Shown: positions 461 through 20,254 of the stretch, piece by piece
Numbering within the stretch: the stretch's first letter is position 1
Layout of the letters: every line of letters starts with the position of its first letter
IMG/VR virus record: IMGVR_UViG_3300020196_000310
Location: 1-20,254 of that record
DNA: 20,254 nucleotides
Source: a virus
Strand: one strand, 5' to 3'
Translations under genes and position numbers: made by a program
Notes under the pieces: generated by a model
What the model was told of the DNA's origin: nothing
Database searches by the model: none
The model's input: the letters and a program-made list of their open reading frames with translations, nothing else

Positions 461-1576
461 ATGGACTACAGTAACTTGTCTAACGAGGAACTTCTTGCAT
501 TAAAGAAGAACCTTGAATACGAAATATCAAAATACTCAAACTTTCAGTTGGTAAGAAAGATTCAGTTGAACTCGGCATATGGTGCGATTGGTAATGAATA
601 CTTTCGCTACTTTAGCACGGATATTGCAGAGGCAATTACTCTTTCTGGTCAACTTTCGATTCAGTATATTGCAAACTCAATCAATCGATTATTGAACCAG
701 ACTCTTGGTACAACAGACGAAGATTATATTGTTGCATCAGATACAGATTCCATGTATATCTGTTTGGATAAATTGGTATCCAAAGTTATTCCGAATGAGA
801 AAGATCCTACAAAGATTAGCAAGTATCTTGATAAGGCATGTGAGTCTATAATTCAACCATTCATTGACAAGGAGTTCAACAAACTTCGTGACACCATGAA
901 TGCATATGAAAACAAGATGGTAATGGGTCGTGAAGTCATTGCGGAGAAGGGTATTTGGACTGCAAAGAAGCGATACATCTTGAACATGTGGAACAAGGAA
1001 GGTGTTCAGTACAAGGAACCTAAGTTGAAGATCATGGGTATCGAAACAACACGGAGTTCTACACCAGAGGCAGTTCGTAAGGATCTAGAGTCTTCAATTA
1101 AGATAATCATGAGCAAAGACGAAGACGCCTTAATTGATTTCATTGAAGATGTTCGTCAAAAGTTTATGAAGTATCGCCCGGAGGATGTTGCGTTTCCTAG
1201 AAGCGCAAATGGTCTTGGTGAATATGCCGACAATCAACAGATTTATCGTAAGTCAACACCAATTCAAGTCAAAGGTGCTTTGATTTACAATCATTATATT
1301 AAGAAGTACAAGTTGGATAAGAAGTACAAGCAGATTACAGACGGCGATAAAATCAAGTTTGTTTATCTGAAGAAACCCCCTCCACTTGGTGGTGTTCGTG
1401 GTCAAGACCACGTGGTTTCATTTATCAATGACATTCCAAAAGAGTTTGAGCTTGATCACTACATAGACTATGATATGCAGTTCGATAAGGCATTCATGGA
1501 ACCACTTCGTTCCATTCTTACTGCAATCAATTGGAAAGCAGAACGAGTTAGTACGCTAGAATCATTATTTGGATAA
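461..1576 (+). CDS. Family B DNA polymerase, C-terminal fragment (gp43-like, split gene)
   Basis: This is the C-terminal portion of a T4 gp43-like replicative DNA polymerase. Visible parts are motif B (KIQLNSAYG, residues 33-41), motif C (SDTDS, residues 93-97, with catalytic D94 and D96), the AKKRY segment of the palm/thumb, and a final STLESLFG. That tail resembles the sliding-clamp-binding tail of T4 gp43. The protein is 371 residues against roughly 900 for gp43, and lacks the exonuclease domain and motif A. An in-frame TAA at 449-451 prevents an upstream extension, and ATG 461 is the first start available; a good ribosome binding site is not evident. The missing N-terminal part is not in the 430 bases upstream, which hold the phosphoesterase. 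A functional enzyme would need the other half in trans, as known for split gp43 in some T4-like phages. UvsX follows 8 bases downstream. Confidence 0.9.
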
Positions 1577-1584
1577 GGAGATTT

Positions 1585-2634
1585 ATGAGCGATTTTTTAA
1601 ATGGTATTGTTAAGGAGTCTGGAAACAAGTATGCATCATTGGTAAACGATGGACTTCCGACAAGTGATGTCGGTGTTCTCATTGATACTGGATGTCATAT
1701 TCTGAATGCTCTTGTTTCTGGTGATGTATATGGTGGCATTCCTGATAACAAGATTATGGCACTTGCAGGAGAACAGGCAACTGGTAAGACCTATATTACT
1801 ATGGGTATTGTTTCTAAGTTCCTGAAGGATCATCCAGAAGCAGTTGTGCTGTATTTTGATTCAGAGCAAGCAGTTACTACTGAGATGTTCAAGAATCGTG
1901 GAGTTGATCCAAAGCGTGTAGCAGTTTTTCCTGTCATGACAATCGAAGAGTTTCGCAAGCAGATTGTTACAATCGTTGACAAGTATCTTGAGATGCCAGA
2001 GAACAAGAGAAAGAAGATGATGATTGTTCTTGACTCGCTGGGCATGTTGTCAACCTCAAAAGAAATCAACGACACTGCCGAAGGCAAGGAAGTTCGTGAC
2101 ATGACCAGAGCACAAGTTATCAAGTCAACTTTCCGTGTATTGACTGTTAAACTTGGCATTGCCCATATTCCCATGATCATTACCAATCATACTTATGATG
2201 TCGTCGGGGCATATGTACCAATGAAAGAGATGGGTGGTGGTAGTGGTCTTAAGTATGCAGCATCTATTGTTGTTTATCTTTCAAAGAAGAAGGACAAGGA
2301 TGCCTCTGGTGAAGTTGTTGGTAATATTATTCATTGCAAGCAACACAAAGGTCGCCTAACAAAAGAAAACAAGGTCGTTGATGTTCGTCTTAACTATGAA
2401 ACAGGTTTAGATCCTTATTATGGTTTGGTTGACTTAGCAGTAGATCATGGTATACTCTCAAAGACAAGTGGTAGAATCGAACTACCAGACGGTTCAAAGG
2501 TGTTTGAAAAGAACATCTACGAAAATCCTGAGAAGTATTTCACCAAGGAACTAATGGATAAGATCAATGAAGCAGCTGCATCAGAATTCAAGTATGGATC
2601 AACTGAAGCAGTAGTAGAGGAAGAAAATGAATAA
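1585..2634 (+). CDS. uvsX: UvsX-like RecA-family recombinase
   Basis: This is a RecA-family strand-exchange ATPase of the T4 UvsX type, used for recombination-dependent replication and repair. The Walker A motif is GEQATGKT (residues 62-69), followed by FDSEQAVT (91-98, catalytic acidic region) and a Walker B MIVLDSLG with D150. A Gly-rich loop [10 protein letters not shown] sits near residue 215. The length (349 residues) is close to UvsX (about 390). An AGGAG ribosome binding site at 1576-1580 overlaps the polymerase stop codon and fits ATG 1585. The C-terminus is acidic. The end overlaps the helicase start by 8 bases, so the two are probably translationally coupled. The neighbours (polymerase, helicase, primase) fit the T4 replication/recombination module. 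Confidence 0.93.
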
Positions 2635-3544
2635 TATTGAGCAAGTAATCCTACATAATATAATTAAAGACGAAAACTTTGCAAGAAAGGTTTCTCCATT
2701 CTTACTGAAGGAGTATTTTCATAATTTCTCTGAGAAGTTTGTCTTTGAAACTATTAGGGATTACTTTTTCAAGTACAACAGCCTCCCCACCAAGGAGGCG
2801 TTGTTCATCATTCTTGACAAGGAAAAGAATCTAACCGAAGTACAAGTTAAGGACATTTCCGATGTTGTGGAGTCAATCACTTCTGATGCTGACATGGTTG
2901 ATCTAGACTGGTTGACGAAAGAAACTGAAGAGTTCTGTCGTAAGAAGGCAATCTACAACGCCATAATGGAATCCATTAATATTATTGATGGTAAATCTTC
3001 CAGAGGTGATGGTGAGATTCCTGATATTCTAAGCAAGGCACTTGCAGTATCTTTTGACCCCAACATCGGACACGATTATATTGAAGACGCAGACAAACGA
3101 TATGACTTCTACCACAAGGAAGAGAAGAAGATTCCGTTTGATCTGGAGTTCTTCAACTCCATCACCAGAGATGGTGTAACTGCCAAGACTCTTAATGTCG
3201 TCATGGCAGGAACTGGAGTTGGTAAGTCTCTATTCCTTTGTCACCATGCAGCACACTGTCTCAAGAGTAGCATGAATGTTCTCTACATCACTTGTGAGAT
3301 GGCAGAAGAACGAATCGCAGAAAGAATCGATGCGAACCTTCTTGATACAAACATTGACGATCTTAAATCATTGCCAAAGATCGTTTATGAAAAGAAACTT
3401 GAGGCAGTTGCTGCTGGTGTGACTGGTAAACTTATCATCAAGGAATATCCAACTGCTACCGCGAATGCCAATCATTTTAGGTTCCTTCTAGATGAACTAA
3501 AATTAAAGAAGAAGTTTGTCCCTGATGTGATCTTTATTGATTAA
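2627..3544 (+). CDS. gp41-like replicative DNA helicase, N-terminal part ending at an in-frame TAA
   Basis: This is a DnaB-family 5'-3' replicative helicase of the T4 gp41 type. Residues 1-140 form the helical N-terminal domain with an [11 protein letters not shown]-type linker; the ATPase core follows with Walker A GTGVGKS (195-201) and the glutamate-containing CEM segment (E224). Translation stops at codon 306 (TAA, 3542-3544), just after VIFID, whose last residue D305 is the Walker B aspartate. The same frame then continues directly with the rest of the helicase core up to 4024, giving a 465-codon composite close to gp41 (475 residues). A helicase lacking everything after Walker B should be inactive. 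Readthrough, recent pseudogenisation or a sequence error are all possible. ATG 2627 overlaps the uvsX end. Confidence 0.88.
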
Positions 3545-4024
3545 AAGAACATCTGTGCATCTTCTAGACACAAAGGCTCAAAGAATGTTAACTCTTATGA
3601 GTATGTAAAATCTATTGCGGAAGAACTCCGTGGATTGGCAATTGAATACAATGTTCCTCTCTTTACCGCCACACAAACAAATCGTGAAGGTTATGGTAAC
3701 ACAGATGTTGATCTAGAAAACACATCAGAGTCTTTTGGACTTCCTGCAACATCGGATCTAATGTTTGCTCTGATTGCTACTGAAGAACTTGATGAAGTTA
3801 ACCAGATCATGGTAAAGCAATTGAAGAATCGGTACAATGACAAAGCAAAGAACCGTAAGTTCATTGTTGGTGTCAATCGTGCAAAGATGAAAATGTACGA
3901 TGTTTCCGCCGAAGATCAGGGATTTATTACTGATGCTGCTAAAAAGCAAAAGGACGAGGAACAAAACTTCTTCAATAAGACAAAACCAAGAAATCTTGTA
4001 AAGACCAGCGATTGGAAAGTCTAA
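3545..4024 (+). CDS. gp41-like helicase, C-terminal part after the in-frame stop
   Basis: This continues the upstream helicase in the same frame, immediately after the TAA. The first codons read KNICASSR, where T4 gp41-like proteins have a DYLxICxS sequence following the Walker B aspartate. Further on are NSYEYVKSIAEELRGLA, a TATQTNREG segment (sensor-like glutamine), the ESFGLPATSDLM segment and the KNRYNDKAKNRKF basic region, all matching the gp41 C-terminal core. No ATG occurs in frame before the core motifs; a TTG at 3635 is the only early candidate and has no convincing ribosome binding site. Independent translation is therefore doubtful, and the segment makes most sense as part of one interrupted gene. 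It ends with TAA directly abutting the ATG of the next gene (TAAATG). Confidence 0.82.
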   Translation, partial: KNICASSRHKGSKNVNSYEYVKSIAEELRGLAIEYNVPLFTATQTNREGYGNTDVDLENTSESFGLPATSDLMFALIATEELDEVNQIMVKQLKNRYNDKAKNRKFIVGVNRAKMKMYDVSAEDQGFITDAAKKQKDEEQNFFNKTKPRNLVKTSDWKV

Positions 4025-4627
4025 ATGATCCTCGTTCAAGTATCAAGTAAAGAACAAAAAGAATTGGTAAAGCAGATTATTGAAAAGCACCACTCCTATG
4101 TACCAACAAATTCTTCTGTGGGTCGTAGGATAGATTGGTTAATCTATGAAAGTGATGACTTCGGTAGTCAGCCAATTGGTATGATTGGTTTAGGATCTTC
4201 TGTATATCCCCCTCCCAAAGACATATTGATTAGGATGGGATTGTCTATGAAAGAATATAGATCAATATTTAATTGTGTCGCAAATAACTGGAGATTTTGT
4301 ATGTCAAAATCTATCAAGAATGCTGGTACACAAATTTTAAGACAACTTAGAGAACTGGCTCCAATTGCATGGAAAGAAAAGTATGGAAACGATTTGAAGG
4401 TGTTAATTACTTTTGTTGCAGGCGGAAATACCGGAGCAGTTTATCGTGCAGATAATTGGGAAGTCATCGGAAAAACTGCCGGACTTCCAAAGCACAAATC
4501 ATCATCAATGAAATGGGATAACTCCGAACAACTCAAAGAGAAGTTTGTAAAACCAACTGGAGAAAATCAGAAAATTATCTTATACAAAGATATACGAAGA
4601 AAAAAGGATAAAAAGAATCCTTTGTGA
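4025..4627 (+). CDS. DruA/Mom-like (DUF4338-type) GNAT-fold protein
   Basis: This 200-residue protein resembles the DUF4338/DruA family and, more distantly, the Mom DNA-modification protein of phage Mu, both thought to have a GNAT-like fold. The pattern in order is a His pair (EKHHSY, 22-23), a Gly-containing strand IGMIGLGSSVY (51-61), NNWRFCMSKS (87-96, compare NNSRF in DruA and NRFCL in Mom), a helix rich in R and L, and then ITFVAGGNTGAVYRADNW (128-145) with the GT/AxYRAxNW signature. It ends with IILYKD near residue 185, where DruA proteins have a K-x-hydrophobic segment. It starts immediately after the helicase stop and precedes the primase by 21 bases, so it belongs to the replisome operon. 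A role in modifying phage DNA is an inference; a nucleic-acid binding role is also possible. I cannot identify a catalytic residue with certainty. Confidence 0.65.
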   Translation: MILVQVSSKEQKELVKQIIEKHHSYVPTNSSVGRRIDWLIYESDDFGSQPIGMIGLGSSVYPPPKDILIRMGLSMKEYRSIFNCVANNWRFCMSKSIKNAGTQILRQLRELAPIAWKEKYGNDLKVLITFVAGGNTGAVYRADNWEVIGKTAGLPKHKSSSMKWDNSEQLKEKFVKPTGENQKIILYKDIRRKKDKKNPL

Positions 4628-5656: not shown

Positions 5657-6393
5657 AACAAAATAAAAGAATTAATGTATTGGATCATGGATTTGTGCAG
5701 TATGTTTCGCACATGGGTGACGATCTTACAGTGGTAAATGCTGCAAGAGTATCATTCAATAAGCATAGTGATTGGGAAATAGACGAAGAAGCAAAGAATC
5801 GTCTAGACTCCACTGGATCATTTTATTGGGAAGAAGATCTACTAAAGATTAGTGATAAAGACAAGAAGCTAATTAAGTATCTTGCACAACACAATCACTG
5901 GACGCCGTTCGCACATCCACAGATTACATTAAGAATCCGTGCTCCCATTTCAATACGCACACAGTTTTTTAAGCACAAACAAGGATTTGTTGAAAATGAA
6001 ATATCACGCCGATATGTGGTTGATGAACCACAGATCTATAATCCACAATGGAGATCACGGCCGTCAAACGGCGCAAAACAGGGTTCTGAAGATTTTATAA
6101 CGCATGAAGACACACTAGTAGTTTGTGATTCGTTTTATAAAACTATTGCAAGTGAGTCTTTGAAGGTATATAATAGACTAATTGAAAATGGAGTTGCACC
6201 AGAACAAGCACGATTCGTCCTACCACAAGGTACTTATACTGAGTGGTGGTGGACTGGTTCCTTGGCAGCGTATGCTAGAGTCTGTAAGCAGCGTCTTGAT
6301 CCTCATGCACAGTGGGAAATTCGTGAATATGCTGCTGCCATAAAGGAAATGATTGCACCGTTGTTTCCAGTTTCATGGGAACAACTTACCTAA
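5641..6393 (+). CDS. thyX: Flavin-dependent thymidylate synthase (ThyX)
   Basis: ThyX methylates dUMP to dTMP using FAD, methylene-tetrahydrofolate and NADPH. The signature region is RTQFFKHKQGFVENEISRRY (residues 106-125). The canonical RHRx7S motif appears here as KHK (111-113) with the serine at S122, one residue further on than in the classical spacing, a form I associate with marine phage ThyX. The C-terminal half carries ARFVLPQGTYTEWWWTGSL (190-208) and DPHAQWEIREYA (220-231), both typical of the family's substrate-binding helices. The length of 250 residues is normal. ATG 5641 lies inside the primase end (16-base overlap). It forms a nucleotide-supply pair with the RNR gene downstream. 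Confidence 0.93.
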   Translation: METSIKQNKRINVLDHGFVQYVSHMGDDLTVVNAARVSFNKHSDWEIDEEAKNRLDSTGSFYWEEDLLKISDKDKKLIKYLAQHNHWTPFAHPQITLRIRAPISIRTQFFKHKQGFVENEISRRYVVDEPQIYNPQWRSRPSNGAKQGSEDFITHEDTLVVCDSFYKTIASESLKVYNRLIENGVAPEQARFVLPQGTYTEWWWTGSLAAYARVCKQRLDPHAQWEIREYAAAIKEMIAPLFPVSWEQLT

Positions 6394-6396
6394 ATA
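6389..6396 (+). promoter_or_regulatory. Possible CTAAATAC promoter-like element before the RNR gene
   Basis: The sequence CTAAATAC overlaps the thyX stop codon and lies about 40 bases before the RNR start. It resembles the TAAATA core of T4-type late promoters but is not an exact match to TATAAATA. The gap to the RNR gene is the longest within the plus-strand block, which makes a promoter plausible. The motif alone is weak evidence. Confidence 0.25.
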
Positions 6397-6435
6397 CCTT
6401 ATCAACCCATAGAGGAATCCAAAAAGGAGAAATAT

Positions 6436-8361
6436 ATGAATGAGATTAAGTTACCTACTCCATACCAGGAGTTTATACACCTTTCACGGTATTCGCGCTG
6501 GCTAGAACAAGAAAAGAGACGAGAAACATGGGCGGAAACAGTATCCCGTTACTTTGATTTCTTTGCAAACCATCTTAAGGAAAAGCATGGTTACAAACTA
6601 TCGGCAGATTTGCGAAATGAACTTGAGAGCGCAGTTCTAAATCTTGAGATCATGCCATCTATGCGGGCATTAATGACCGCAGGAGAAGCACTTGCAAGAG
6701 ACAATACCGCCGGGTACAATTGTTCATATGTTGCAGTCAATAAGGTTCGTGCCTTTGACGAAATCCTATATATTCTGATGTGCGGCACTGGTGTAGGTTT
6801 CAGCGTGGAGAGACAATATGTTGAAAAACTTCCTACAATATCTGAACACTTTACTCAAAGCGATACCGTCATTGTTGTCAAAGATTCTAAAGAAGGATGG
6901 GCTAAAGCGTACCGAGAATTGGTATCCCTTCTTATTGGTGGACAGATCCCGAAATGGGACTTATCAAAGATTCGTCCTGCTGGTGCGCGACTCAAGACTT
7001 TCGGAGGACGCGCTTCAGGCCCAAGACCTTTGGACGAACTGTTCCACTTCACAATCAACACTTTTAAGAAAGCTGCGGGACGAAAACTTACTTCCATCGA
7101 ATGTCATGATATCATCTGCAAGATTGCTGAAATTGTCGTTGTCGGAGGAGTGCGTAGGTCAGCACTTATCTCTCTATCCAACCTCACGGATGAACGGATG
7201 CGTGACGCTAAAACTGGTCAGTGGTGGGTTGACAATCCGCAACGAGCTCTAGCAAATAACTCAGTTGCATATAAGGAGAAGCCCGAGATCGGCACTTTCA
7301 TGGAAGAGTGGGTTTCTCTCTATAAGAGCAAGAGTGGAGAGCGTGGTATCTTCAATCGTGATGCTGCACAGAAGACTGTTGCCAAACTAGGTGATCGTAG
7401 AGATCATACCAAAGAGTTCGGAACAAATCCATGCTCAGAGATAATTCTACGAGACAAGGAGTTCTGCAATCTTTCAGAGGTAGTTGATCGTCCAAGCCCC
7501 AATCCAGAAACTCTGAAGCGTAAGGTGCAGCTGGCGACCATTCTAGGAACATGGCAAGCGTCTATGACTTACTTCCCATACCTTTCTAGTGATTGGAAGC
7601 ACAACTGCGAAGAAGAGGCTCTTCTAGGTGTATCCCTTACTGGTATTCTAGACAATGCAATCATGCGTGGAAAAAATCCAAATCTTGAAGTACTACTAGA
7701 ATCATTAAAGGCAGATTCTGTTGCTACTAATAAGGAATGGGCAAAGAAACTAGGAATAAATCCTGCCGCCTCTATTACTTGCGTAAAACCTTCAGGTACA
7801 GTTTCACAACTCGTTGATGCTGCATCTGGTATTCATGCTCGACACAACGAATACTTCATTCGCACTGTTCGTGCAGACATCAAGGATCCACTTTGTAAGT
7901 TTATGATCGATGCAGGATTCCCTGCTGAACCGTGTGTCATGCGTCCAGAGCATACTATGGTATTCTCCTTCCCCATGAAGGCAGAAGGTTCAGTCACTCG
8001 TAGCGACATGACTGCAATCGAACACCTAGAGCTCTGGTTGACCTACCAGAAGCACTGGTGCGAACACAAACCATCAATCACTGTTACCGTAAAGGAACAT
8101 GAATGGATGGAAGTGGGTGCATGGGTTTACAAGCACTTTGATGAGGTGAGTGGTATTTCATTCCTACCACACTCTGATCACACATATCAGCAAGCACCTT
8201 ATCAGGATTGCACCAAGCAAGAATACGAAGCACTTCTCAGCAAGATGCCAGTAGTTCAGTGGGGTGATCTAGTCAAGTACGAGAAGGAAGACAATACCGC
8301 CGGAACACAAACATATGCCTGCTCTGGTGATAAATGTGAACTTGTTGATTTGACTAAATAA
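6436..8361 (+). CDS. Class II (adenosylcobalamin-dependent) ribonucleotide reductase
   Basis: This is a 641-residue reductase that converts ribonucleotides to deoxyribonucleotides by a B12-generated radical, similar to monomeric class II enzymes such as Lactobacillus leichmannii RTPR. C96 (AGYNCSY) and C344 (EFCNLSEV) fit the redox cysteine pair. NPCSEI (331-336) gives the thiyl-radical C333 with E335 and N331. MCGTGVGFSVE (115-125) and CVKPSGTVSQL (449-459) are phosphate/base-binding loops. The C-terminal CSGDKC (C629, C634) has the spacing of the thioredoxin-interacting tail. No N-terminal ATP-cone is visible. A clear AAGGAG ribosome binding site at 6424-6429 supports ATG 6436. The gene ends just before a strong terminator. 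It would let the phage make DNA precursors only where cobalamin is available. Confidence 0.93.
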   Translation: MNEIKLPTPYQEFIHLSRYSRWLEQEKRRETWAETVSRYFDFFANHLKEKHGYKLSADLRNELESAVLNLEIMPSMRALMTAGEALARDNTAGYNCSYVAVNKVRAFDEILYILMCGTGVGFSVERQYVEKLPTISEHFTQSDTVIVVKDSKEGWAKAYRELVSLLIGGQIPKWDLSKIRPAGARLKTFGGRASGPRPLDELFHFTINTFKKAAGRKLTSIECHDIICKIAEIVVVGGVRRSALISLSNLTDERMRDAKTGQWWVDNPQRALANNSVAYKEKPEIGTFMEEWVSLYKSKSGERGIFNRDAAQKTVAKLGDRRDHTKEFGTNPCSEIILRDKEFCNLSEVVDRPSPNPETLKRKVQLATILGTWQASMTYFPYLSSDWKHNCEEEALLGVSLTGILDNAIMRGKNPNLEVLLESLKADSVATNKEWAKKLGINPAASITCVKPSGTVSQLVDAASGIHARHNEYFIRTVRADIKDPLCKFMIDAGFPAEPCVMRPEHTMVFSFPMKAEGSVTRSDMTAIEHLELWLTYQKHWCEHKPSITVTVKEHEWMEVGAWVYKHFDEVSGISFLPHSDHTYQQAPYQDCTKQEYEALLSKMPVVQWGDLVKYEKEDNTAGTQTYACSGDKCELVDLTK

Positions 8362-8386
8362 TTAGTGTAGGTTATCCGAACACACG

Positions 8387-8407
8387 ACCCCCCGCAAGGG
8401 GGGTTTT
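8387..8407 (+). terminator. Intrinsic terminator after the RNR gene
   Basis: A 7-bp perfect stem (ACCCCCC / GGGGGGT) with a GCAA tetraloop is followed by a T run (8404-8407). It lies about 25 bases after the RNR stop. The T run is only on the plus strand, so it terminates the replication/nucleotide operon and not incoming minus-strand transcripts. Confidence 0.85.
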
Positions 8408-8412
8408 GCGTT

Positions 8413-8420
8413 TATAAATA
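8413..8420 (+). promoter_or_regulatory. T4-type late promoter octamer TATAAATA before the RuvC-like gene
   Basis: The exact octamer TATAAATA follows the terminator by 5 bases and ends 5 bases before ATG 8426. By analogy with T4 late promoters, transcription would begin close to the ATG, giving a nearly leaderless message. No ribosome binding site is visible there, which agrees with that. Chance occurrence in AT-rich DNA is possible. Confidence 0.5.
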
Positions 8421-8425
8421 TCTAC

Positions 8426-8986
8426 ATGGGAATAATCGCTGGCATTGACTATAGTTTGAATGGGCCTGCAATATGTGTAGCAAACACCGAGAAGGAGTTT
8501 TGCTTCAAGAATTGCACATTTTATTTCTTGACTGATGTTAAGAAGAATGCCACGGTGTTTTTGAATAACATATACGGAGAGAACTTCTCTGAATATGATC
8601 AGGACTGCGAAAGATATGACACTATTTCAGAATGGGTTATGCGAATTTGTATGGGTTGCGAGCAGGTTGCACTTGAAGGTTATGCTTATAATGCACAGGG
8701 TAGGGTTTTTCACATTGCTGAGAACACTGGCATTCTGAAATATAAGTTATGGCAAAACTCTATTCCATTAGAAATAGTTCAACCCTCACATGTAAAGAAG
8801 ATGGCAACCGGAAAGGGAAATTCAGACAAAGAAGGAATGTATGAATCCTTTGTCAAGGAGACATTCATCTCATTGAAGGATATAATGACTCCAAATAGAA
8901 CTGGAGTGGTTAATCCAGTATCTGATATAGTTGATGCTTTTTATATTTGTAAGATTCTGTACTACTCTATGAAAGAATCAAATTAA
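8426..8986 (+). CDS. RuvC-like Holliday junction endonuclease (RNase H fold)
   Basis: This 186-residue protein resembles the RuvC-like resolvases of marine T4-like phages, which cut branched DNA before or during packaging. The start GIDYSLNGPAICV gives the first catalytic aspartate (D8) on strand 1 of an RNase H fold. ALEGYAYNAQGR (near residues 91-102) holds the second acidic residue (E93). PSHVKKMATGKGNSDKEGM is the basic segment, and SDIVDAFYICK near the C-terminus provides the last acidic residues. It stands alone after a terminator and behind a late-promoter octamer, so late expression is likely, fitting a packaging role. Its stop codon overlaps the stop of the convergent minus-strand gene within TTAA. 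Confidence 0.8.
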   Translation: MGIIAGIDYSLNGPAICVANTEKEFCFKNCTFYFLTDVKKNATVFLNNIYGENFSEYDQDCERYDTISEWVMRICMGCEQVALEGYAYNAQGRVFHIAENTGILKYKLWQNSIPLEIVQPSHVKKMATGKGNSDKEGMYESFVKETFISLKDIMTPNRTGVVNPVSDIVDAFYICKILYYSMKESN

Positions 8987-9393
8987 GGTCTTACCCCGGC
9001 TCCACCAGCTGCACCCCTGGCCCCTTGTTTAACCATATCTCTTGCCTGCTGTTGTGCTTTGGCTCCATGTGCTCCGCTAAGAGCATTTGAATCATCGATA
9101 GTTATTGATCCGGTTGTTGTCTTATTTCCTTGTTGTTTATGAAATGTTTTTGTTTTTACATTAGTTGATTTTGGAGTAGTTGTCATTCCCCCAGGACCTT
9201 CATCATCTAAATCTCCCCCGCCCTGAACTACTTTAGTTCCAGTTGGAACGCCACTAGATTGTGACGATTTTCCACATCCACCGATTCCACACGATGCCAA
9301 GGCAAGAGCAGCAACTGCTCCTACTTTACCGGCTTTTCTAAAAAAAGATTCATCAATATTTTGCTCGTACAGATATTGTTTGAAAGTTTTCAT
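8983..9393 (-). CDS. Small putative lipoprotein with capsid-targeting-like N-terminus
   Basis: I do not recognise a family. The 136-residue protein begins MKTFKQYLYEQ, which matches the pattern of the T4 capsid-targeting peptide of internal proteins (MKTYQEFIAEA) and has L-Y-E where the T4 prohead protease (L/I-x-E) would cut. It continues with RKAGK, a hydrophobic stretch and a good lipobox LAS-C (C35), followed by another Cys (C40) and a Gly/Ser/Thr/Gln-rich low-complexity tail. The two N-terminal readings imply different destinations (head interior or membrane). The ATG overlaps the stop of the preceding gene (ATGA), giving a three-gene coupled set with the membrane proteins at 9390-10141. 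Its stop shares TTAA with the convergent resolvase gene. Confidence 0.7.
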   Translation of the reverse strand: MKTFKQYLYEQNIDESFFRKAGKVGAVAALALASCGIGGCGKSSQSSGVPTGTKVVQGGGDLDDEGPGGMTTTPKSTNVKTKTFHKQQGNKTTTGSITIDDSNALSGAHGAKAQQQARDMVKQGARGAAGGAGVRP

Positions 9394-9707
9394 TGTGGCT
9401 TATTATCTTCAGTAAGTAGTTTTTTCTTATCTTCATCTTCGTCACAGTCATCTGGTTCTTTCTTGAGGAAGAACTCTTTGATGCCCCAGGCGACAACGAG
9501 GAAGAGAACCGGCGCATACCACCATAACCATGAGTTATCTTTGCGTACTTCTTTTCCTTGTTCAATCTTGGATTTGATATCCATCATGATAACCGAGTCA
9601 GCAGTATTATCTGGGACAATTTCTGGTGCAACGGATTGACAACTAGCAAAGGCTATCAAAACAGAAATAGAAAGAATAGCAATGAACATTTTCCATATTT
9701 TCTTCAT
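9390..9707 (-). CDS. Small lipoprotein/membrane protein, spanin-like candidate
   Basis: This 105-residue protein has a positively charged N-terminus (MKKIWK), a hydrophobic segment and a lipobox-like FAS-C at residues 20-23, suggesting signal peptidase II processing. A second hydrophobic segment (about 59-80, beginning SWLWWYAP) is followed by a very acidic tail (DDCDEDED). The ribosome binding site GGGAGGAAG upstream of ATG 9707 is strong. It overlaps both neighbours by ATGA junctions. Size, lipobox and a neighbouring three-helix membrane protein suggest a lysis-related role (spanin or holin accessory), but no sequence family was recognised and no endolysin is in the window. Confidence 0.65.
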   Translation of the reverse strand: MKKIWKMFIAILSISVLIAFASCQSVAPEIVPDNTADSVIMMDIKSKIEQGKEVRKDNSWLWWYAPVLFLVVAWGIKEFFLKKEPDDCDEDEDKKKLLTEDNKPQ

Positions 9708-10141
9708 GACTTCCTCCCTGCGGCGGCAGTGCCGAAGTAGAATCCAACAATAGACACAAGAATTTGTCTATTCTCCGATGTATAGAGGAATCCATTCACC
9801 TCTACGAAGAATTTCTTGGTTGTCTCTGGAACTAGTCCAAACATAGCTTCTGGTGATACCGTATCAACTTCAACCAAGGTAGGTACACCAAAGAATGGTA
9901 GAATGAACGGAGCAGCAATTGTTCCAAAGAGGACAGTTAGAACGATCAACTGACGAACACTAGCACCAATGTCGAGTGGTACTCTCAGTGCTGCCTTGTC
10001 TTGATTTTCGGTTGTTTGTTTGTTTGCGGTGATTAACCGTTCAAACATTTCTTTTTGGTCTTGGCTCTTTTGGGCCATGTACTTGAACACGAATCCAGTT
10101 AAGCTTCCACCCACTAATGAAATTAATTCTGTAGGAATCAT
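9704..10141 (-). CDS. Three-helix membrane protein, holin-like candidate
   Basis: The start is placed at ATG 10141 because a perfect GGAGG (10151-10147) lies 5 bases before it; a TTG at 10153 that would add four residues overlaps this site. The 145-residue product has an N-terminal hydrophobic helix (about residues 4-20), a charged amphipathic region, a long hydrophobic segment beginning RQLIVLTVLFG (about 63-84) and a last one beginning RQILVSIVGFYF, followed by a basic end. Three membrane segments and the small size resemble phage holins of the three-helix type, including those of gene transfer agents, but this is topology, not homology. It begins a coupled trio with the two putative lipoprotein genes. 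Confidence 0.7.
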   Translation of the reverse strand: MIPTELISLVGGSLTGFVFKYMAQKSQDQKEMFERLITANKQTTENQDKAALRVPLDIGASVRQLIVLTVLFGTIAAPFILPFFGVPTLVEVDTVSPEAMFGLVPETTKKFFVEVNGFLYTSENRQILVSIVGFYFGTAAAGRKS

Positions 10142-10146
10142 AAAAA

Positions 10147-10151
10147 CCTCC
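10147..10151 (-). promoter_or_regulatory. Strong GGAGG ribosome binding site fixing the start at 10141
   Basis: GGAGG is separated by five T residues from ATG 10141. It fixes the start of the three-helix membrane protein and rules out the overlapping TTG at 10153. Confidence 0.85.
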
Positions 10152-10155
10152 AAAT

Positions 10156-10163
10156 ATATTTAG
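10156..10163 (-). promoter_or_regulatory. Possible late-promoter-like CTAAATAT
   Basis: On the minus strand CTAAATAT lies in the short gap between the 556-residue protein gene and the membrane protein gene. It resembles the TAAATA core of T4-type late promoters, but the first bases differ from the exact octamer. It could drive the coupled membrane/lipoprotein trio. Confidence 0.3.
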
Positions 10164-10166
10164 GAA

Positions 10167-11837
10167 TTAGTAACTTTCTAATCCTAGTATTTTTCTTCCT
10201 ATTTTAAAATGCCGTTTTTTCTTCTTCCTTGTTAGTTTGTTTTTAGCAGGGACTGCGATATCACCATTAAAATTACCCTCAGAATCATACCCCAATCCTT
10301 GAACCCCCCCCGAACCAACCGAATTTGCAACCATACCATATTCAAACAGAAGATGACCGTATTTTTCTATAAATTCGTTTACCTTCTTTTTCTTGAACTT
10401 ATCCTTTTGTGCCACATTTGCGGCAGTAAATGTAGTAGGGACAAATTTTATCGGAAGTAATCCAGGAAGTTCTGAAACAAACCCTTCATGACCGTGACCT
10501 CTTGCTGGTTGCATAGGCAATTGCCCGGTCCTGGTCAGGTGTCCGAATATAACATCTCTTGCTGAATCAACTGCATTGTGAGCGTCGAATAGGTGCTGTA
10601 GGGTTTTTTCTCTACCCCTGAACGCTTCAAGGTGTCCCTGAAGTCGTCTTGCTTGTTTTCCTAACTTACCTTCTAATGCTTTTTGTATTCTTGCCGTTGT
10701 AAAATCTCTATAACCTTGGACTGTTCTAGCATGTTCGCCTCTTTGAACGGCATTTGAGAACATTGTCATATGTCCGGCACGAGTTGCGGCTTTATCTTTT
10801 GTAGTAGGATCCGTATGCGCTGCAATTTCATCGGATAACGCCTGCACATTCTCTCTCTTTTTTTTTTTATTCGCTTTGGAGATATGACCTCTTAGTAGTC
10901 TTCTTTCCCTGAGGCCTAGTTTTGGTACGTTATTAAGAGAAAGAGATGGAAAGTGTCGCTCTGCTGTGTTTAAAAAGGAGACATCAGGAACTGCTTCTAG
11001 TCTTTTACCTGTCTGTGAGTCGAATCTACCGTGGACTGCTCGTATAGTTTTGGTGGTCTTCTTTGGACGTTTATAGTGAATCAGATTTCCTTTGAGTGTT
11101 CCTTCCCCCGAATCATGTATGAAATCTGCTTGATATGCAGTATCTGAATCTATTTTATCGTGGCCTGCTACCTCAAGTGCAGTAATGAAAGGTGTAACAA
11201 TGTGAGGTTTATCTTCTCTTGCTGCATTTTCTTTTACTTCTTCTGGTGAATAGAATCTCGTTGCGCCCCGTCCTTTGTAACTAACAAAAGGTCTACCACC
11301 AGACTTTCCAAATACAAGTGATATACTTCCATCTGCTTTGTACGAGAGGTTGTGTCCCTTTCTTCCTTTGCCAGTTAATGCTTCGTAAGTTGCTTTTAGG
11401 TGCTCAACCGTATGATGACCCCCTCCGTGATAAATGAATTCACCTACATGGGGAAGATGTCCAATTGACTCAAACTCTGCTGTTTCTTTTAAATACTTCT
11501 TTATTTGTTCTGAAAGCATTTCTTTGTTTCCTCCGTACATATTTACAGACTCTTCTTTTAATAGATCTATTGCAGTAACTAAATTATTCATATATGCTTT
11601 TATTTTTGGACTACATGATGTGTTTATCAAAAATTTAAGTCTTATGATTAGTTTATCGTATGGTGAAATGTATTTATCAGGATCTTTTAAAAAATTACCC
11701 TTTTCGTCTATTACTCCACTTCTATACGCTGCCATATCTTTAAATGGAGTTGTTATTGATTTTATAAATTTATATAATGAAAATGCATTTACTATTTGAC
11801 CTAAACTTGAAGAATTTGTTTTTCTTTGATAATTCAT
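10167..11837 (-). CDS. Putative covalent nucleotidyltransferase (ligase-like, DUF6267-type) phage protein
   Basis: This 556-residue protein resembles a phage family I recall as DUF6267. It has the landmarks of the covalent nucleotidyltransferase superfamily (DNA/RNA ligases, capping enzymes). A conserved lead-in GHLPHVGEFIYHGG (126-139) is followed by YKADGSIS, a KxDG motif with candidate nucleophile K167. Then come PFVSYKGRG (183-191, motif IIIa-like), AYQADFIH (234-241, motif III-like), and much later HEGFV (450-454, motif IV-like EGxV) and PIKFVP (462-467, motif V-like lysine K464). A basic helical segment of about 200 residues (245-445) separates the early and late motifs and is unusual. 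The N-terminal 120 residues are distinct. The start overlaps the upstream gene stop (ATGA). The C-terminus is very basic. Activity and substrate are unknown. Confidence 0.7.
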   Translation of the reverse strand: MNYQRKTNSSSLGQIVNAFSLYKFIKSITTPFKDMAAYRSGVIDEKGNFLKDPDKYISPYDKLIIRLKFLINTSCSPKIKAYMNNLVTAIDLLKEESVNMYGGNKEMLSEQIKKYLKETAEFESIGHLPHVGEFIYHGGGHHTVEHLKATYEALTGKGRKGHNLSYKADGSISLVFGKSGGRPFVSYKGRGATRFYSPEEVKENAAREDKPHIVTPFITALEVAGHDKIDSDTAYQADFIHDSGEGTLKGNLIHYKRPKKTTKTIRAVHGRFDSQTGKRLEAVPDVSFLNTAERHFPSLSLNNVPKLGLRERRLLRGHISKANKKKKRENVQALSDEIAAHTDPTTKDKAATRAGHMTMFSNAVQRGEHARTVQGYRDFTTARIQKALEGKLGKQARRLQGHLEAFRGREKTLQHLFDAHNAVDSARDVIFGHLTRTGQLPMQPARGHGHEGFVSELPGLLPIKFVPTTFTAANVAQKDKFKKKKVNEFIEKYGHLLFEYGMVANSVGSGGVQGLGYDSEGNFNGDIAVPAKNKLTRKKKKRHFKIGRKILGLESY

Positions 11838-12211
11838 TTTAGATCTTTTAATATTTTATCTATTCTATGATCTGTTCTTAGACTTTGAACGTCTACTTCT
11901 GGTATAGAATATGGTATGTAATTTAAGTAGAGTAAAAAAGATTTTAATAATGAGTGCAACTCTATATTTATTTTATAAAAGAGTATTCTACAACATGCCT
12001 CTGCACCAAATATGTTTTGCAAAGTTATTATTTTATTTAATATCAATCTTTCTTTGAGTTCTCCACCTTTTTTAAATCTTAATAGTAATCTTTTGATATA
12101 TTTTATTTTATCTAAGTCTTCATAAAATTCATCTATGCCCAAGCAAGATGGATTATTGTACATCTTGCTGGCATATAATAAAAAAGTATCAGGACTTATT
12201 TTTTGTTTCAT
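11834..12211 (-). CDS. Conserved small phage protein of unknown function
   Basis: This 125-residue protein has the sequence pattern of a small conserved protein often seen in T4-like marine phages: LYASKMYNNPSC near the start, EFYEDLDKIKYIKRLL, LKERLILNKIITLQNIFG and CCRILFYKI, then a hydrophobic LKSFLLYLNYIP segment. It is predicted to be all-helical, with no enzymatic motif I can name and no signal peptide. It begins in a TAATG junction with the 515-residue gene and ends in an ATGA overlap with the nucleotidyltransferase-like gene, so it is translated with them. A structural or adaptor role in the late operon is likely, but this is inferred from context alone. Confidence 0.7.
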   Translation of the reverse strand: MKQKISPDTFLLYASKMYNNPSCLGIDEFYEDLDKIKYIKRLLLRFKKGGELKERLILNKIITLQNIFGAEACCRILFYKINIELHSLLKSFLLYLNYIPYSIPEVDVQSLRTDHRIDKILKDLK

Positions 12212-13758
12212 TACTTAGCAATTGGTTGTCTATCGTTCTTTGATCCCTTTTTCTTCATTTTGTGAGATTTAGCAAATCTACTAAAGTTTCTTACCAAATC
12301 GTTGACAACTCTATCTTTTTCCGTTTTGGTTAGAGTTGTTTTTGCTTTTCTCATTGCAGAATTCACAACATAATAAAGTTCTCTTTGGATTTGATCTAGC
12401 TTTAGTTGACCTTTATTTTTCTTTTGCAAGAGATGATTAAAAATTGGCATTAAAACTCTATCTCTAATTTCACCTTTTCTGTTTATCAAATGCATTATTG
12501 ATCTTGCTCTATCTTTATTTCCTTTTGATTGTTTTTTTGCAGTATGTTTATCTAATTTACCTTCAAATATTGGTAATTGTTTAAATCTCATAGGATCACC
12601 AACCACAGTTTCACTTGATGGCATGGAAGCAGACATTGGTCCGGCCGAAGAAGCTCCTCCGTCACTACAACCATATTCACACATTTTCTTCACTTTTTTC
12701 TTCTTTGAATATGCTTCTCTAAGTTTCTTTGCTAAACTGTGAAGTTTTGAAGATCCAGATCGGTTGGTTTCAGTAGAGTGTGCTTCACCTTTATGTGCTT
12801 TTGCTTTTCTATGAATGTTTTCTGAATCCTTTTTTTTATTTACTAAAGATTCTATTAGAAGTTTTTCTTCCGCTAATTGTTGATTTCTTATCTGTGCCGC
12901 GGATTGAGTGACTGGTTCTTTTTCAGAAACTTTGGTGAGAATATCACCAGTTGTTTTCTTTAATCCTTCAATTTCTTTTGGTAGATTGAATTTTTCTTTG
13001 TCTTTTTTACCTTCAGTTTTTCCTTTTGCAATTGCATCTGCTGCTTTATCTCCTGCTTGAACAGTTGCACTGCCCCCGCCTTCTCCTGCTTTTTCTGTAG
13101 CACTTCCAGATCCAGGCATCGGCGGCATCATTCCTTTAATTTGATCTGTCGCGGCGCTCACTTCTCCTGCTACTTTTGCACCTTGTTTTGCAACATCCAC
13201 GATTTTGCCAAGCATACCTTCGGATAATTTTTCTTTTTCTTTTCTTCTTGCTTCAACTCTTCTTCCTATATTTTCATTGACTGGACTAGATGGATTGCCT
13301 AATTTAATTTTACCCTTTAGCATCCACATACAAGAGTCTTCATCATATGAGCAAAGAATTTCTAACACACCCTTTGCAAGATCTTCTCCTCTATCAAATC
13401 CTTTTGATAAATCTGTGGTGGGAGTCTGACCAAATACATCACCGTAATGTTTAATTGGGAATGCATTGATGCCTGGGTTTAGTTTTACTCTATTTCCATC
13501 AAATTGGAAATCAATTCCAACATGATTGAGTCTGCTTCTTAGTTCCTTGATTGCGGCATTTGGATCTACATAAGAACCACCAAGAAATCTATGAATGAAG
13601 GCGTTGATTCTGGCCATAGAATCGCCTTGATCTATTCTAAATACACCGAAATCGTTTTCCGCACTTCTGGCTGGATTTCCCATGAATCCATTAAATACGG
13701 ATCCGCCTTCGGTATAATCTTCTAACAGTTCTTTATAGAGTTGCTTAAATTTCTTCAT
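12211..13758 (-). CDS. Large Lys-rich late protein, candidate internal head protein
   Basis: I do not recognise a named family. The 515-residue protein starts MKKFKQLYKELLED, similar in spacing to capsid-targeting peptides of T4 internal proteins, with L-L-E as a possible prohead-protease site. Residues 10-165 look like a folded domain (ARINAFIHRFLGGSYVDP, LKGKIKLGNP). The middle (about 170-340) is low complexity, rich in Lys, Glu, Ala and Gly. Around residue 360 is KMCEYGCSDGG. Residues 385-515 form a second helical Lys/Arg-rich region with FKQLPIFEGK (another I-F-E) and a basic end. A strong AGGAG ribosome binding site and a TATAAATA octamer lie just upstream, so late expression is well supported. 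It may bind DNA. Confidence 0.75.
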   Translation of the reverse strand: MKKFKQLYKELLEDYTEGGSVFNGFMGNPARSAENDFGVFRIDQGDSMARINAFIHRFLGGSYVDPNAAIKELRSRLNHVGIDFQFDGNRVKLNPGINAFPIKHYGDVFGQTPTTDLSKGFDRGEDLAKGVLEILCSYDEDSCMWMLKGKIKLGNPSSPVNENIGRRVEARRKEKEKLSEGMLGKIVDVAKQGAKVAGEVSAATDQIKGMMPPMPGSGSATEKAGEGGGSATVQAGDKAADAIAKGKTEGKKDKEKFNLPKEIEGLKKTTGDILTKVSEKEPVTQSAAQIRNQQLAEEKLLIESLVNKKKDSENIHRKAKAHKGEAHSTETNRSGSSKLHSLAKKLREAYSKKKKVKKMCEYGCSDGGASSAGPMSASMPSSETVVGDPMRFKQLPIFEGKLDKHTAKKQSKGNKDRARSIMHLINRKGEIRDRVLMPIFNHLLQKKNKGQLKLDQIQRELYYVVNSAMRKAKTTLTKTEKDRVVNDLVRNFSRFAKSHKMKKKGSKNDRQPIAK

Positions 13759-13774
13759 TTTTATCTCCTAGTCT

Positions 13775-13782
13775 TATTTATA
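13775..13782 (-). promoter_or_regulatory. T4-type late promoter TATAAATA before the 515-residue protein gene
   Basis: The exact octamer reads on the minus strand 16 bases before ATG 13758, with the ribosome binding site AGGAG between them. The spacing matches T4-like late promoters, and it lies in the short gap after the stop of the upstream gene. Confidence 0.6.
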
Positions 13783-13786
13783 ACGC

Positions 13787-15547
13787 TTATTTCTTTGCTT
13801 TTTTATTCTTCTTTACACCGCCGCGAGCTCTTAGGGTAATATATGTGGCAATACGGTGTCTCGACTCGTCGTCGGTGTCGCCTTTGATTGGTTGTGGTTT
13901 GATGCCTTTTGCTTTCTCGTCTCTTGTTCTAATCTCTGCTCTAGTCATTGATCCCTTGTTTTTCTTATTGACTACTTCTTCTTGAACAAGGAATTGTTTC
14001 TCGTAGTCGCAGACATCACATGTTGGATTGTATGACTCACAACGGCATCCCCAGACTCTGAGTGCAGCATTGATCTTGCTCTTTGGATCTCTTGCAGTCT
14101 TTGCACTGGTTCTTCTTCTCTTCATTCCACACATACGAGAGCAGAACGACTTTCTTCTCTTCTGAGTCTTTCCCTTGAGTTTGCCGAATCCACCCTTCTT
14201 TTGTGCTTCTCGTTTAGTTTCAATACCGGCATGAATACCTTGTCTTCTTGCCTCGGAACGAGAGAGTCCGCCTTCAGGGTGATTCTTTCCCTTCACGAAT
14301 CCTTTGTATGGTTTCTTTGCTTCTTCTAGTCTTCGTTTGTCCTTTTCAGTATCACTTTCTTTATTTACTTGGAGATCTTCTCCTAATCCAACTGCTAGTT
14401 TTATTTTTCGAATTAATCCCCCTAAACCAGTTGGTGGATGAGCAATATCTTGTAGAGCTTGTAATACACTTACACCTTTGGGCAAAGGAAACATTTTCTC
14501 GTCTCGGTTGTCTCTTATAATAGGAGGATCTGTTTCTGGATTGTGGCGTCTATATCCTCCTTTGCCTACATTAATTGCATAATCATAAATAAAATTCTCA
14601 TTCAAATCTTCTTCTGCATCGCTAGACATATAATCAGCAACAGTGTCAATACCATCAGTTGCCTTTGTTATCTTCGATTGAACCCATGCAGGAAGTTGTT
14701 GATTCTTTCCTTTTATTTTGTTTCTTAGTCTCTTTATTGCGTGTTGGATTGTGTCAAGTTGATTTGCTGCCATTTCACCTTCGTCGTCAATTTCATTTCC
14801 TTTTTGTATTGCTATATGATTCTCTGGCAGAAGTTTTTTCATTTGATTTGCATAAAAGTAATTTACAGATTCACTTATAGGAGATGCTTCATCCTTTGGA
14901 TCATATACTTTAATTAAAGAGGTGCCGTCTCTACTTTTTGATAATCGCTTTAAGTCGTTTGGTGATTTAGCAAAAATTGGAAGAGGTTGTCCGGTTGCTG
15001 GATCTGTTTCTTGTCCTTTAATATATTTCTTAATCTTTGGATCAAATATTGCAAACTCTTCATGTACTTTCTTTTTATGCTTCTTTTTAGTTTTCCAACC
15101 ACCGCCCCTCTTCTTATACCATTTAGCGGCCCAACCATTGGCGTAGGCTGATGGATATACATCAAACTTCGATCTTGCAAGTGCTTTTGCCTTTGACCAT
15201 AATTCTGGATTTGTTGGTACATTCTTTTCTGTTAAGTATTCCATCGCCTCTGATATCCTTCCCTTTCCAAAGTTAGAAACATTTACTGGTTTGCCACCTT
15301 TACCCGCACGATCCGCCACGGGATCATGTTTTCTTTTTGCCTTTACAGCCGCAGCCCTTCGTTTTTTGCTGAGTTGCTTTCTTTTCTTGTTCGACATGCA
15401 TTTTGGTTTGGGTTCTGAACTTGATCCTCTCGCGCATGGTCCTATTGCCTCCCCTTTTGAATTAATTCTTTTCCATCCACCATCCGGGTGTTTTGGATTG
15501 AACCAATTTCTTAAATCTTCGTTCATTAATTTATTTAAATCCTTCAT
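13787..15547 (-). CDS. Modular Cys/Lys-rich phage protein (recurrent phage modules, DUF5872/DUF6321-like)
   Basis: This 586-residue protein is a string of modules I associate with marine T4-like phages. Residues 8-80 (EDLRNWF, GPCAR, KPKC, then a basic stretch) resemble the N-terminal WF/GPC module. Residues 118-150 include VYPSAYANGWAAKWYKK (DUF5872-like). Residues 255-310 contain EGEMAANQL and LPAWVQSKITKATD. Residues 405-503 (GKNHPEGGLSRSEARR, RRKSFCSRMCGMK, NAALRVWGCRC) resemble DUF6321, and 534-577 end with ATYITLRARGG. Cys pairs at 501/503 and 510/513 could bind zinc. The DUF names are from memory and should be checked. The protein is strongly basic and has no catalytic motif I can see. 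Its start overlaps the GAF-like gene stop (ATGA). A nucleic-acid-binding virion component is plausible. Confidence 0.75.
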   Translation of the reverse strand: MKDLNKLMNEDLRNWFNPKHPDGGWKRINSKGEAIGPCARGSSSEPKPKCMSNKKRKQLSKKRRAAAVKAKRKHDPVADRAGKGGKPVNVSNFGKGRISEAMEYLTEKNVPTNPELWSKAKALARSKFDVYPSAYANGWAAKWYKKRGGGWKTKKKHKKKVHEEFAIFDPKIKKYIKGQETDPATGQPLPIFAKSPNDLKRLSKSRDGTSLIKVYDPKDEASPISESVNYFYANQMKKLLPENHIAIQKGNEIDDEGEMAANQLDTIQHAIKRLRNKIKGKNQQLPAWVQSKITKATDGIDTVADYMSSDAEEDLNENFIYDYAINVGKGGYRRHNPETDPPIIRDNRDEKMFPLPKGVSVLQALQDIAHPPTGLGGLIRKIKLAVGLGEDLQVNKESDTEKDKRRLEEAKKPYKGFVKGKNHPEGGLSRSEARRQGIHAGIETKREAQKKGGFGKLKGKTQKRRKSFCSRMCGMKRRRTSAKTARDPKSKINAALRVWGCRCESYNPTCDVCDYEKQFLVQEEVVNKKNKGSMTRAEIRTRDEKAKGIKPQPIKGDTDDESRHRIATYITLRARGGVKKNKKAKK

Positions 15548-16173
15548 TGTTTCACCCTTGTTTCTTCTTCAAGGAGTACTTGTATTCTGTCTCTTGTATC
15601 TGTCATAAGTTTAGATGTTTGAATAATATTATTTAGTGCCTTCTTTGTCTTGCTTGGGCTACACCATTGAAGCATTAAATAACCAGAAATGTTATTCTTG
15701 TATTTTACTGGAAGCACCATGAATGAGTTTACATTTGATATTTCCATAAAGGACTTATGAAATCCTTCTCTTTCAGATGATACAAAATGCATATCTGCTG
15801 AGTTGTTAATTATTTTTTCAATAAGTGTTGCGAAGAGAGAAATTAAAAGACCTGTTTTCTTGTCACCTTCGGCTGCCACGCCACGAGAAACAGACTCGTG
15901 TGTGAGTGAGAGTTTTCTCATCGACACACCATCCATGAAGTACTCACCGTTGTGAAACCGAATTAATTGTGCTCTTGCTGCATCTGAAAGAACTCTTATT
16001 TCTGTTAGTTGTTCGTGAATGTCACTATGAACTCTCCAGTCCATGTCATCTTCTTTTTTGATTTTCTTTGGCCACAATTTCCATATGCTTGCACTAATTG
16101 CAACTGCGACAGCAATGCCAAGTTCGATCCAATAATTAAAACTAAACTCCTTGATTAGATCTACTTCCTGCAT
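15544..16173 (-). CDS. Membrane-anchored GAF-like protein
   Basis: This 209-residue protein has one N-terminal membrane segment (about residues 14-33, WIELGIAVAVAI) followed by a basic WPKKIKK stretch, so the rest should face the cytoplasm. Residues 50-205 look like a GAF-type sensor domain: a helix leading to RAQLIRFHNGEYF (68-80), then VSMRKLSLTHESVSRG, a central FVSSEREGFHKSF and MVLPVKYKNNISGYLMLQW (152-170, a core beta hairpin). No enzymatic domain is attached. The ligand is unknown. AGAGG before ATG 16173 is an adequate ribosome binding site. It lies 2 bases after the 874-residue gene and overlaps the next one. A role in sensing or membrane association is inferred. Confidence 0.6.
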   Translation of the reverse strand: MQEVDLIKEFSFNYWIELGIAVAVAISASIWKLWPKKIKKEDDMDWRVHSDIHEQLTEIRVLSDAARAQLIRFHNGEYFMDGVSMRKLSLTHESVSRGVAAEGDKKTGLLISLFATLIEKIINNSADMHFVSSEREGFHKSFMEISNVNSFMVLPVKYKNNISGYLMLQWCSPSKTKKALNNIIQTSKLMTDTRDRIQVLLEEETRVKQ

Positions 16174-16175
16174 AG

Positions 16176-18800: not shown

Positions 18801-18818
18801 AAATTAGTTCCTGTACTG

Positions 18819-18826
18819 TATTTATA
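18819..18826 (-). promoter_or_regulatory. T4-type late promoter TATAAATA before the 874-residue protein gene
   Basis: The exact octamer reads on the minus strand 18 bases before ATG 18800, with AGGAA between. It lies directly after the terminator at 18839-18868, as expected for a new transcription unit. Confidence 0.6.
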
Positions 18827-18838
18827 CGGATTTTACGG

Positions 18839-18868
18839 ATAAAAAAACCAGAGGGCGACCCTCTGGTT
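18839..18868 (-). terminator. Intrinsic terminator of the exonuclease operon
   Basis: A perfect 10-bp stem (AACCAGAGGG / CCCTCTGGTT) has a 3-base loop and is followed on the minus strand by a run of T residues (complement of 18841-18847). It lies 20 bases after the stop of the DNA-binding protein gene and before the next late promoter, so it separates two minus-strand units. Confidence 0.9.
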
Positions 18869-18887
18869 GGCACAAATGTGACTATAA

Positions 18888-19286
18888 TTAGACTTCTTGT
18901 ATAGGTTCGTCTTTTATATCGGAATCTAAACGAATTATTTTGATTCCGTATAGTTCTTCTGCCACAAATGTGTACCCTTTGTATTGTTTTCTTTTCCCAC
19001 TTATAACTTCGTACATAGCAGATCTATTTAAATCGTTTTCCTTACAGTATTCAGTAAAGTGAGATATTTTGATCTCTTTGTTGTCTTTGGAAAAGACCCA
19101 AGACTTTCTTGGTATTTCTTGTTTTTTGTTTTCTTCCCACTTCCAATACCTACCCTCTTTCACGAACTTACCACCGTGGGAATCTATGAATAGTTTTCTC
19201 CAAATGTTTGATCTAGAATCATCATTACATGCAGTCCATGTAAGAGAATTTCTTCTATTCACTTCCTCAAGTCGTAGTCGCTTCAT
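18888..19286 (-). CDS. Homing-endonuclease-associated (NUMOD-like) DNA-binding protein
   Basis: This is a 132-residue protein. The C-terminal half (HFTEYCKENDLNRSAMYEV, then GKRKQYKGYTFV, about residues 76-110) has the helix-turn-helix plus GKRKxxKGY pattern of NUMOD-type DNA-binding modules from GIY-YIG and HNH homing endonucleases. The first half (IWRKLFIDSHGGKFV, YWKWEENKK) is less recognisable; no nuclease catalytic motif is visible. It may be a homing-endonuclease remnant or a small DNA-binding protein. The start overlaps the exonuclease stop by 20 bases, and an ATGAGGAATAA ribosome binding region precedes it. A terminator follows. Confidence 0.6.
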   Translation of the reverse strand: MKRLRLEEVNRRNSLTWTACNDDSRSNIWRKLFIDSHGGKFVKEGRYWKWEENKKQEIPRKSWVFSKDNKEIKISHFTEYCKENDLNRSAMYEVISGKRKQYKGYTFVAEELYGIKIIRLDSDIKDEPIQEV

Positions 19287-19962: not shown

Positions 19963-20254
19963 TACTGTTTTCTTGATATATTATAGAACTCTTTCATCAG
20001 TCTGTCAATTACTGTTTCTTTTTTTGGTTCTGGTTTTGGTTCATTTGATAAAATAACATTTAATTTATTTGAAAGATCTTCGTTTTCTGCAATTTGTTTG
20101 TGTGGTTCTCTAACTGATATCGTTTTAGTTGGTCCTGTTCTAATTGAACCAAGTGCATTTTGTCCTAACCAAGTCATTTGTTCAAGACCAGATGATTGGC
20201 CAGATGATGAAGTCGAATCAGTCTGTGGTCTATTTTCCGTAGACAACCTAGTTT
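19962..20254 (-). CDS. Ser/Thr-rich protein of unknown function, 5' end outside window
   Basis: The frame is open to the right-hand edge of the window, so the gene is probably truncated at its 5' end; a TTG at 20246 is the only visible start candidate. I do not recognise a family. The visible part begins with a low-complexity Ser/Thr/Gln stretch (DSTSSSGQSSG), passes through TGPTKTISVREPHKQI, then a Pro/Glu/Lys linker (EPKPEPKKE) and a helical end (VIDRLMKEFYNI). Its TAA shares one base with the ATG of the exonuclease, so the two are coupled. Confidence 0.65.
   Translation of the reverse strand, partial: TRLSTENRPQTDSTSSSGQSSGLEQMTWLGQNALGSIRTGPTKTISVREPHKQIAENEDLSNKLNVILSNEPKPEPKKETVIDRLMKEFYNISRKQ

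What the first reader, a model, noticed from the sequence alone, without database searches (positions are those of the whole stretch)
3542..3544. In-frame TAA exactly after the Walker B aspartate of the replicative helicase
The frame before and after the stop is the same, and both halves match one gp41-like helicase. The motif FID-Y-L-N-I appears as FID-stop-K-N-I: from the likely codons TAT TTG to TAA AAG, three adjacent bases differ (TTT to AAA), which is more than a single point error. TAA ends other genes here normally, so recoding of all TAA codons is excluded. The options are stop readthrough, a true inactivating change, a tiny inversion or an assembly error. The second half lacks a good start, so two separately made proteins seem unlikely.
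Basis: partly seen in the sequence, partly recalled or inferred. Interest (0 to 1): 0.7.

Follow-up and report, generated by a model that had tools for sequence, protein, structure and literature searches.

The report
False stop from three-base sequence error
The stop codon that seems to cut a phage's DNA-unwinding gene in two is almost certainly a sequence error: near-identical phage contigs have an intact gene there, and this record carries at least six more errors of the same odd kind.

Summary
The TAA at 3542-3544 is really in this record. It lies in frame inside a T4 gp41-like helicase (2627-4024), directly after the Walker B Asp. It is almost certainly not biological. A contig 99.76% identical over 5,405 bp (L002, from a Lake Tanganyika metagenome) reads TAT CTG (Tyr-Leu) where the window reads TAA AAG. 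Of 189 distinct relatives, 187 have Tyr plus Leu or Ile there and none has a stop. Bases 3544-3546 (TCT to AAA) became copies of base 3543.

The same signature, exactly three bases overwritten by copies of the preceding + strand base, occurs at six more window sites: 1378, 7498, 10861, 11557, 12032 and 14420. Near-identical contigs from two metagenomes (L002, L162, L163) contradict the window at every one. The resulting amino acid changes are radical, whereas other variants between these contigs are mostly synonymous. This type makes up 7 of 8 clean clusters in the window against about 4 of 150 in control contig pairs (p about 6e-9, post hoc). The finding is best read as a sequencing, assembly or record-handling artefact. 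Readthrough, recoding and a split helicase are not supported. The exact technical cause is not known.

The parts
2627..4024 (+). gp41/DnaB-like replicative helicase gene, one reading frame interrupted by the TAA
   Evidence: PHROG 19 and solved helicase 8dtp/8due match both halves in order
3542..3544 (+). apparent in-frame stop TAA
   Evidence: TAT in L002, L003, L004 and TAC in L005
3544..3546 (+). three-base replacement TCT to AAA, copies of base 3543 (A); creates the stop
1378..1380 (+). three-base replacement AAA to CCC, copies of base 1377; Asn to Pro in the KPNPLGG motif of the DNA polymerase piece
7498..7500 (+). GAC to CCC after C (two bases differ); Asp to Pro in ribonucleotide reductase
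10861..10863 (+). AAC to TTT after T; Leu to Lys in the 556-aa ORF on the - strand
11557..11559 (+). GCC to TTT after T; Ala to Lys in the 556-aa ORF on the - strand
12032..12034 (+). ATG to TTT after T (two bases differ); His to Lys in the 125-aa ORF on the - strand
14420..14422 (+). TTT to CCC after C; Lys to Gly in the 586-aa ORF on the - strand
18825..18833 (+). 9-bp insertion only in the window; can be read as an unmerged short overlap plus a three-base T fill (inference)
   Evidence: absent from L162, L163, L164, L166

Best explanation
The in-frame TAA is an error in this sequence record, not a feature of the phage. At seven places three consecutive bases were overwritten by copies of the preceding + strand base. 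At 3544-3546 this turned Tyr-Leu after the Walker B Asp into stop-Lys. The phage population encodes one intact gp41-like helicase. Shown: the signature, its recurrence, and the agreement of near-identical contigs and relatives against the window. Inferred: that it arose in base calling, read correction, assembly or later handling of the record; I cannot say which. Copying from the left at all five sites where direction can be told hints at a contig-level rather than read-level step, but only weakly (about 0.06 by a sign test).
For: L002, 99.76% identical over 5,405 bp, has TAT CTG at the site; its 13 differences include exactly two three-base blocks. L162 and L163, from two metagenomes, agree with each other against the window at five more such blocks. 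Copied triplets are 7 of 8 clean clusters in the window and about 4 of 150 in control contig pairs. No stop at this motif in any other viral contig scanned; 187 of 189 distinct relatives have Tyr plus Leu/Ile. Window-private changes are 11 nonsynonymous to 1 synonymous events, other differences among the same contigs 3 to 11. The polymerase Asn lost at 1378 is kept in all aligned relatives.
Against: The raw reads were not available and the window's own sample is not named. The technical step that makes exactly three copies of the preceding base is not identified. Some window-private differences (7482, 7487, 11041, 13287, 14174-14176) do not follow the rule.
Confidence: 0.96

Rival explanations
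1. A real inactivating multi-nucleotide change in a minority or dying phage lineage: the helicase is truly truncated in this genome.
For: The stop is in the record, and multi-base mutations do occur. The window shares the base at 9776 with L162 against L163, so it is a member of the same natural population.
Against: It would need seven independent triplets of the same form in one 20-kb fragment of a genome otherwise about 99.7% identical to its neighbours, nearly all radical changes in replication and other genes.
Confidence: 0.025
2. Programmed stop readthrough: the TAA is real and the ribosome reads through it to make the full helicase.
For: The frame continues with a conserved C-terminal half.
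Against: The stop is absent from every relative examined, including the near-identical L002, and the same kind of change occurs where no stop results. The frame after the stop is preserved simply because only three bases were overwritten.
Confidence: 0.005
3. Two separately made helicase proteins (a split gene), ending at 3544 and restarting downstream.
For: Split replication genes exist nearby: the DNA polymerase is in pieces.
Against: The first downstream start is a TTG at 3635, 30 codons into the conserved part, and all relatives have one continuous frame here.
Confidence: 0.003

Closest known systems
T4-type gp41 / DnaB-like replicative helicase (PHROG 19; PDB 8DTP, 8DUE)
   Same: Both halves match it in consecutive order; Walker A (AGTGVGKS) and the Walker B Asp are present
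   Different: A stop after the Walker B Asp that no relative has
False in-frame stops from sequencing or assembly errors in metagenomic contigs
   Same: Private to one record, contradicted by near-identical assemblies, unselected amino acid changes
   Different: Unusual form: three bases at a time, copies of the preceding base, length preserved. One similar event was seen in another record (L022 at 3148, CAG to AAA after A)
Programmed stop codon readthrough
   Same: Open frame and conserved sequence continue past the stop
   Different: Stop not conserved in any relative, and the change is one of a set of identical-type errors

Membership tests
gp41/DnaB-like replicative helicase | Both halves match one helicase family in order | tested here: met
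   PHROG 19 positions 160-464 and 470-603; solved helicase residues 3-311 and 315-459
gp41/DnaB-like replicative helicase | Continuous open reading frame through Walker B | tested here: not met
   TAA at 3542-3544 in this record; met in all relatives examined
Sequencing or assembly artefact | Near-identical independent assemblies lack the change | tested here: met
   L002 at this site; L162 and L163 at five like sites
Sequencing or assembly artefact | Same error type recurs in the record above a control rate | tested here: met
   7 of 8 clean clusters against about 4 of 150 in control pairs
Sequencing or assembly artefact | Raw reads of the same sample disagree with the record | not testable with these tools
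   No reads available; the window's own sample is not named
Programmed stop codon readthrough | Stop conserved among relatives | tested here: not met
   No stop at this motif in other viral contigs; 0 of 189 distinct relatives
Programmed stop codon readthrough | Peptide spanning the stop | not testable with these tools
   No proteomics data

The most novel reading that the evidence does not exclude
The window is correct, and this phage lineage has undergone a real, undescribed mutational process that overwrites three bases at a time with the preceding base, truncating its helicase.
Probability: 0.015. Interest if true: 0.6.

Novelty: not a real feature. Interest (0 to 1): 0.06.

Why it matters
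It removes a tempting case of stop readthrough or split helicase. It also gives a simple flag for false stops in metagenomic phage contigs: a three-base run copying the preceding base that near-identical contigs lack. If the fault is common in some assemblies it would produce false pseudogenes and false recoding calls.

Tried and rejected
Looked for the same stop in other viral contigs with a degenerate pattern and an exact 23-base pattern: none; these scans may leave out the window's own record. Tiny inversion: excluded, since the reverse complement of TCT is AGA. Recoding of all TAA: other genes end normally at TAA and relatives have Tyr here, so rejected. Intron or intein: rejected, since the two halves are contiguous with no extra sequence. 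N runs in the fetched loci as a source of three-base fills: only four of 245 loci hold N, as single bases or one pair and never three in a row, so a filled NNN gap is not directly supported. A paper search for a described error of this type gave one read-simulator paper, not read, and no clear precedent.

Full report
What was claimed. It offered readthrough, inactivation, a tiny inversion or an assembly error.

ORF 2627-3544 (305 aa) ends at the TAA, and the same frame is open from 3545 to the stop at 4022-4024. Both pieces match PHROG 19 in consecutive profile positions (E 4.8e-80 and 4.3e-36). Both also match the same solved sequences, named DnaB-like replicative helicase, at residues 3-311 and 315-459 (8dtp/8due). 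So this is one helicase gene with a stop inside.

Relatives do not have the stop. A search with the first 305 residues gave 80 related viral contigs. The closest, L002, is identical over all 305 residues and reads TAT CTG where the window reads TAA AAG. Over 5,405 bp L002 differs from the window at only 13 bases. Six are synonymous changes near one end of L002 and one is a synonymous change at 3247. The other six form two blocks of three: 1378-1380 (window CCC, L002 AAA) and 3544-3546 (window AAA, L002 TCT). The first block replaces the Asn of a KPNPLGG motif in the DNA polymerase; that Asn is present in all relatives that align there. The window's exact string is in no other viral contig. Among 189 distinct relatives in the fetched loci, 182 have Tyr-Leu, 5 Tyr-Ile and 2 other residues, never a stop.

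The fault recurs through the record. Two more near-identical contigs, L162 (12,764 bp) and L163 (21,385 bp), cover 6194-18966 and 6201-20254 at about 99.7% identity. L002 and L162 come from IMG 3300021092 and L163 from IMG 3300020578. Both are among the 24 Lake Tanganyika metagenomes of PMC8245535, sequenced on HiSeq 2500 and assembled with metaSPAdes. The two contigs agree with each other against the window at five more blocks: 7498 GAC to CCC, 10861 AAC to TTT, 11557 GCC to TTT, 12032 ATG to TTT and 14420 TTT to CCC. In all seven blocks the window has three copies of the preceding + strand base. At five of the seven the direction can be told, and it is always from the left. At 7498 and 10861 the same base lies on both sides. 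At four of these five sites more distant contigs that align there also disagree with the window; at 14420 none aligned.

Statistics. I took all pairs of fetched contigs at 97% identity or more as a control. Clean clusters of two or three mismatches within three bases are of the copied-triplet kind in 7 of 8 cases in the window and about 4 of 150 in controls (Fisher p about 6e-9). The rate per base gives p about 1e-7. These tests were chosen after seeing the pattern, and control events were reduced to distinct ones by hand, so the numbers are guides. Counting each block once, window-private changes are 11 nonsynonymous to 1 synonymous; other differences among the same contigs are 3 to 11 (p about 5e-4). 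The private changes mostly put Lys, Pro or Gly at residues that relatives keep. That is what unselected errors look like.

Interpretation. The most economical reading is that the record, not the phage, is at fault. The TAA, the polymerase Pro and the others are three-base overwrites made in base calling, read correction, assembly or later handling. The phage population has an intact helicase. I did not find the technical step. A 9-bp insertion at 18825-18833 that only the window has can be read as an unmerged short overlap plus a three-base T fill, which would suit a contig-joining fault, but this is inference. A few private differences (7482, 7487, 11041, 13287, 14174-14176) do not follow the rule and may be other errors or real variants.

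Limits. The window's own sample is not named and its reads were not available. The collection scans may hide its own record. The conclusion rests on comparison with contigs from two metagenomes of one lake and many more distant ones.

Verdict. Not a real feature; low interest beyond a useful warning flag for false stops in metagenomic phage contigs.

Noticed in passing
4025-4627 (+): An ORF with a DruA domain (PF14236, 2.9e-9) and weak Mom-like similarity lies between helicase and primase. In L003 and L005 the helicase is followed directly by the primase, so it looks like a recent insertion.
   Followed up: partly
461-1576 (+) and L005:1-2800: The DNA polymerase is split: the window has the C-terminal piece only (phrog_1918), after a phosphoesterase-like ORF (2-430). 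In L005 the N-terminal piece is followed by an HNH endonuclease-like ORF and other ORFs before the phosphoesterase. Synechococcus phage DSL-LC02 has one 2.5-kb polymerase gene.
   Followed up: partly
7482 and 7487: Two further window-only T to A changes 11-16 bases before the 7498 triplet in the ribonucleotide reductase gene; 7487 changes a Val kept in relatives to Asp. They do not copy the preceding base.
   Followed up: partly
14174-14176: Window CTT where L162 and L163 have TGA (Ser to Lys on the - strand); a three-base block that does not fit the copy rule.
   Followed up: partly
L162, window 15092-15111: L162 alone differs from the window and L163 at five bases within 20, three of them nonsynonymous: a local variant or an error of its own.
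   Followed up: no
L022:1784-1817 and 3148-3150: This record (IMGVR_UViG_3300002514_003088) holds scattered single N, mostly three bases apart, and one CAG to AAA triplet after A relative to L021 and L023, the same form as in the window.
   Followed up: no
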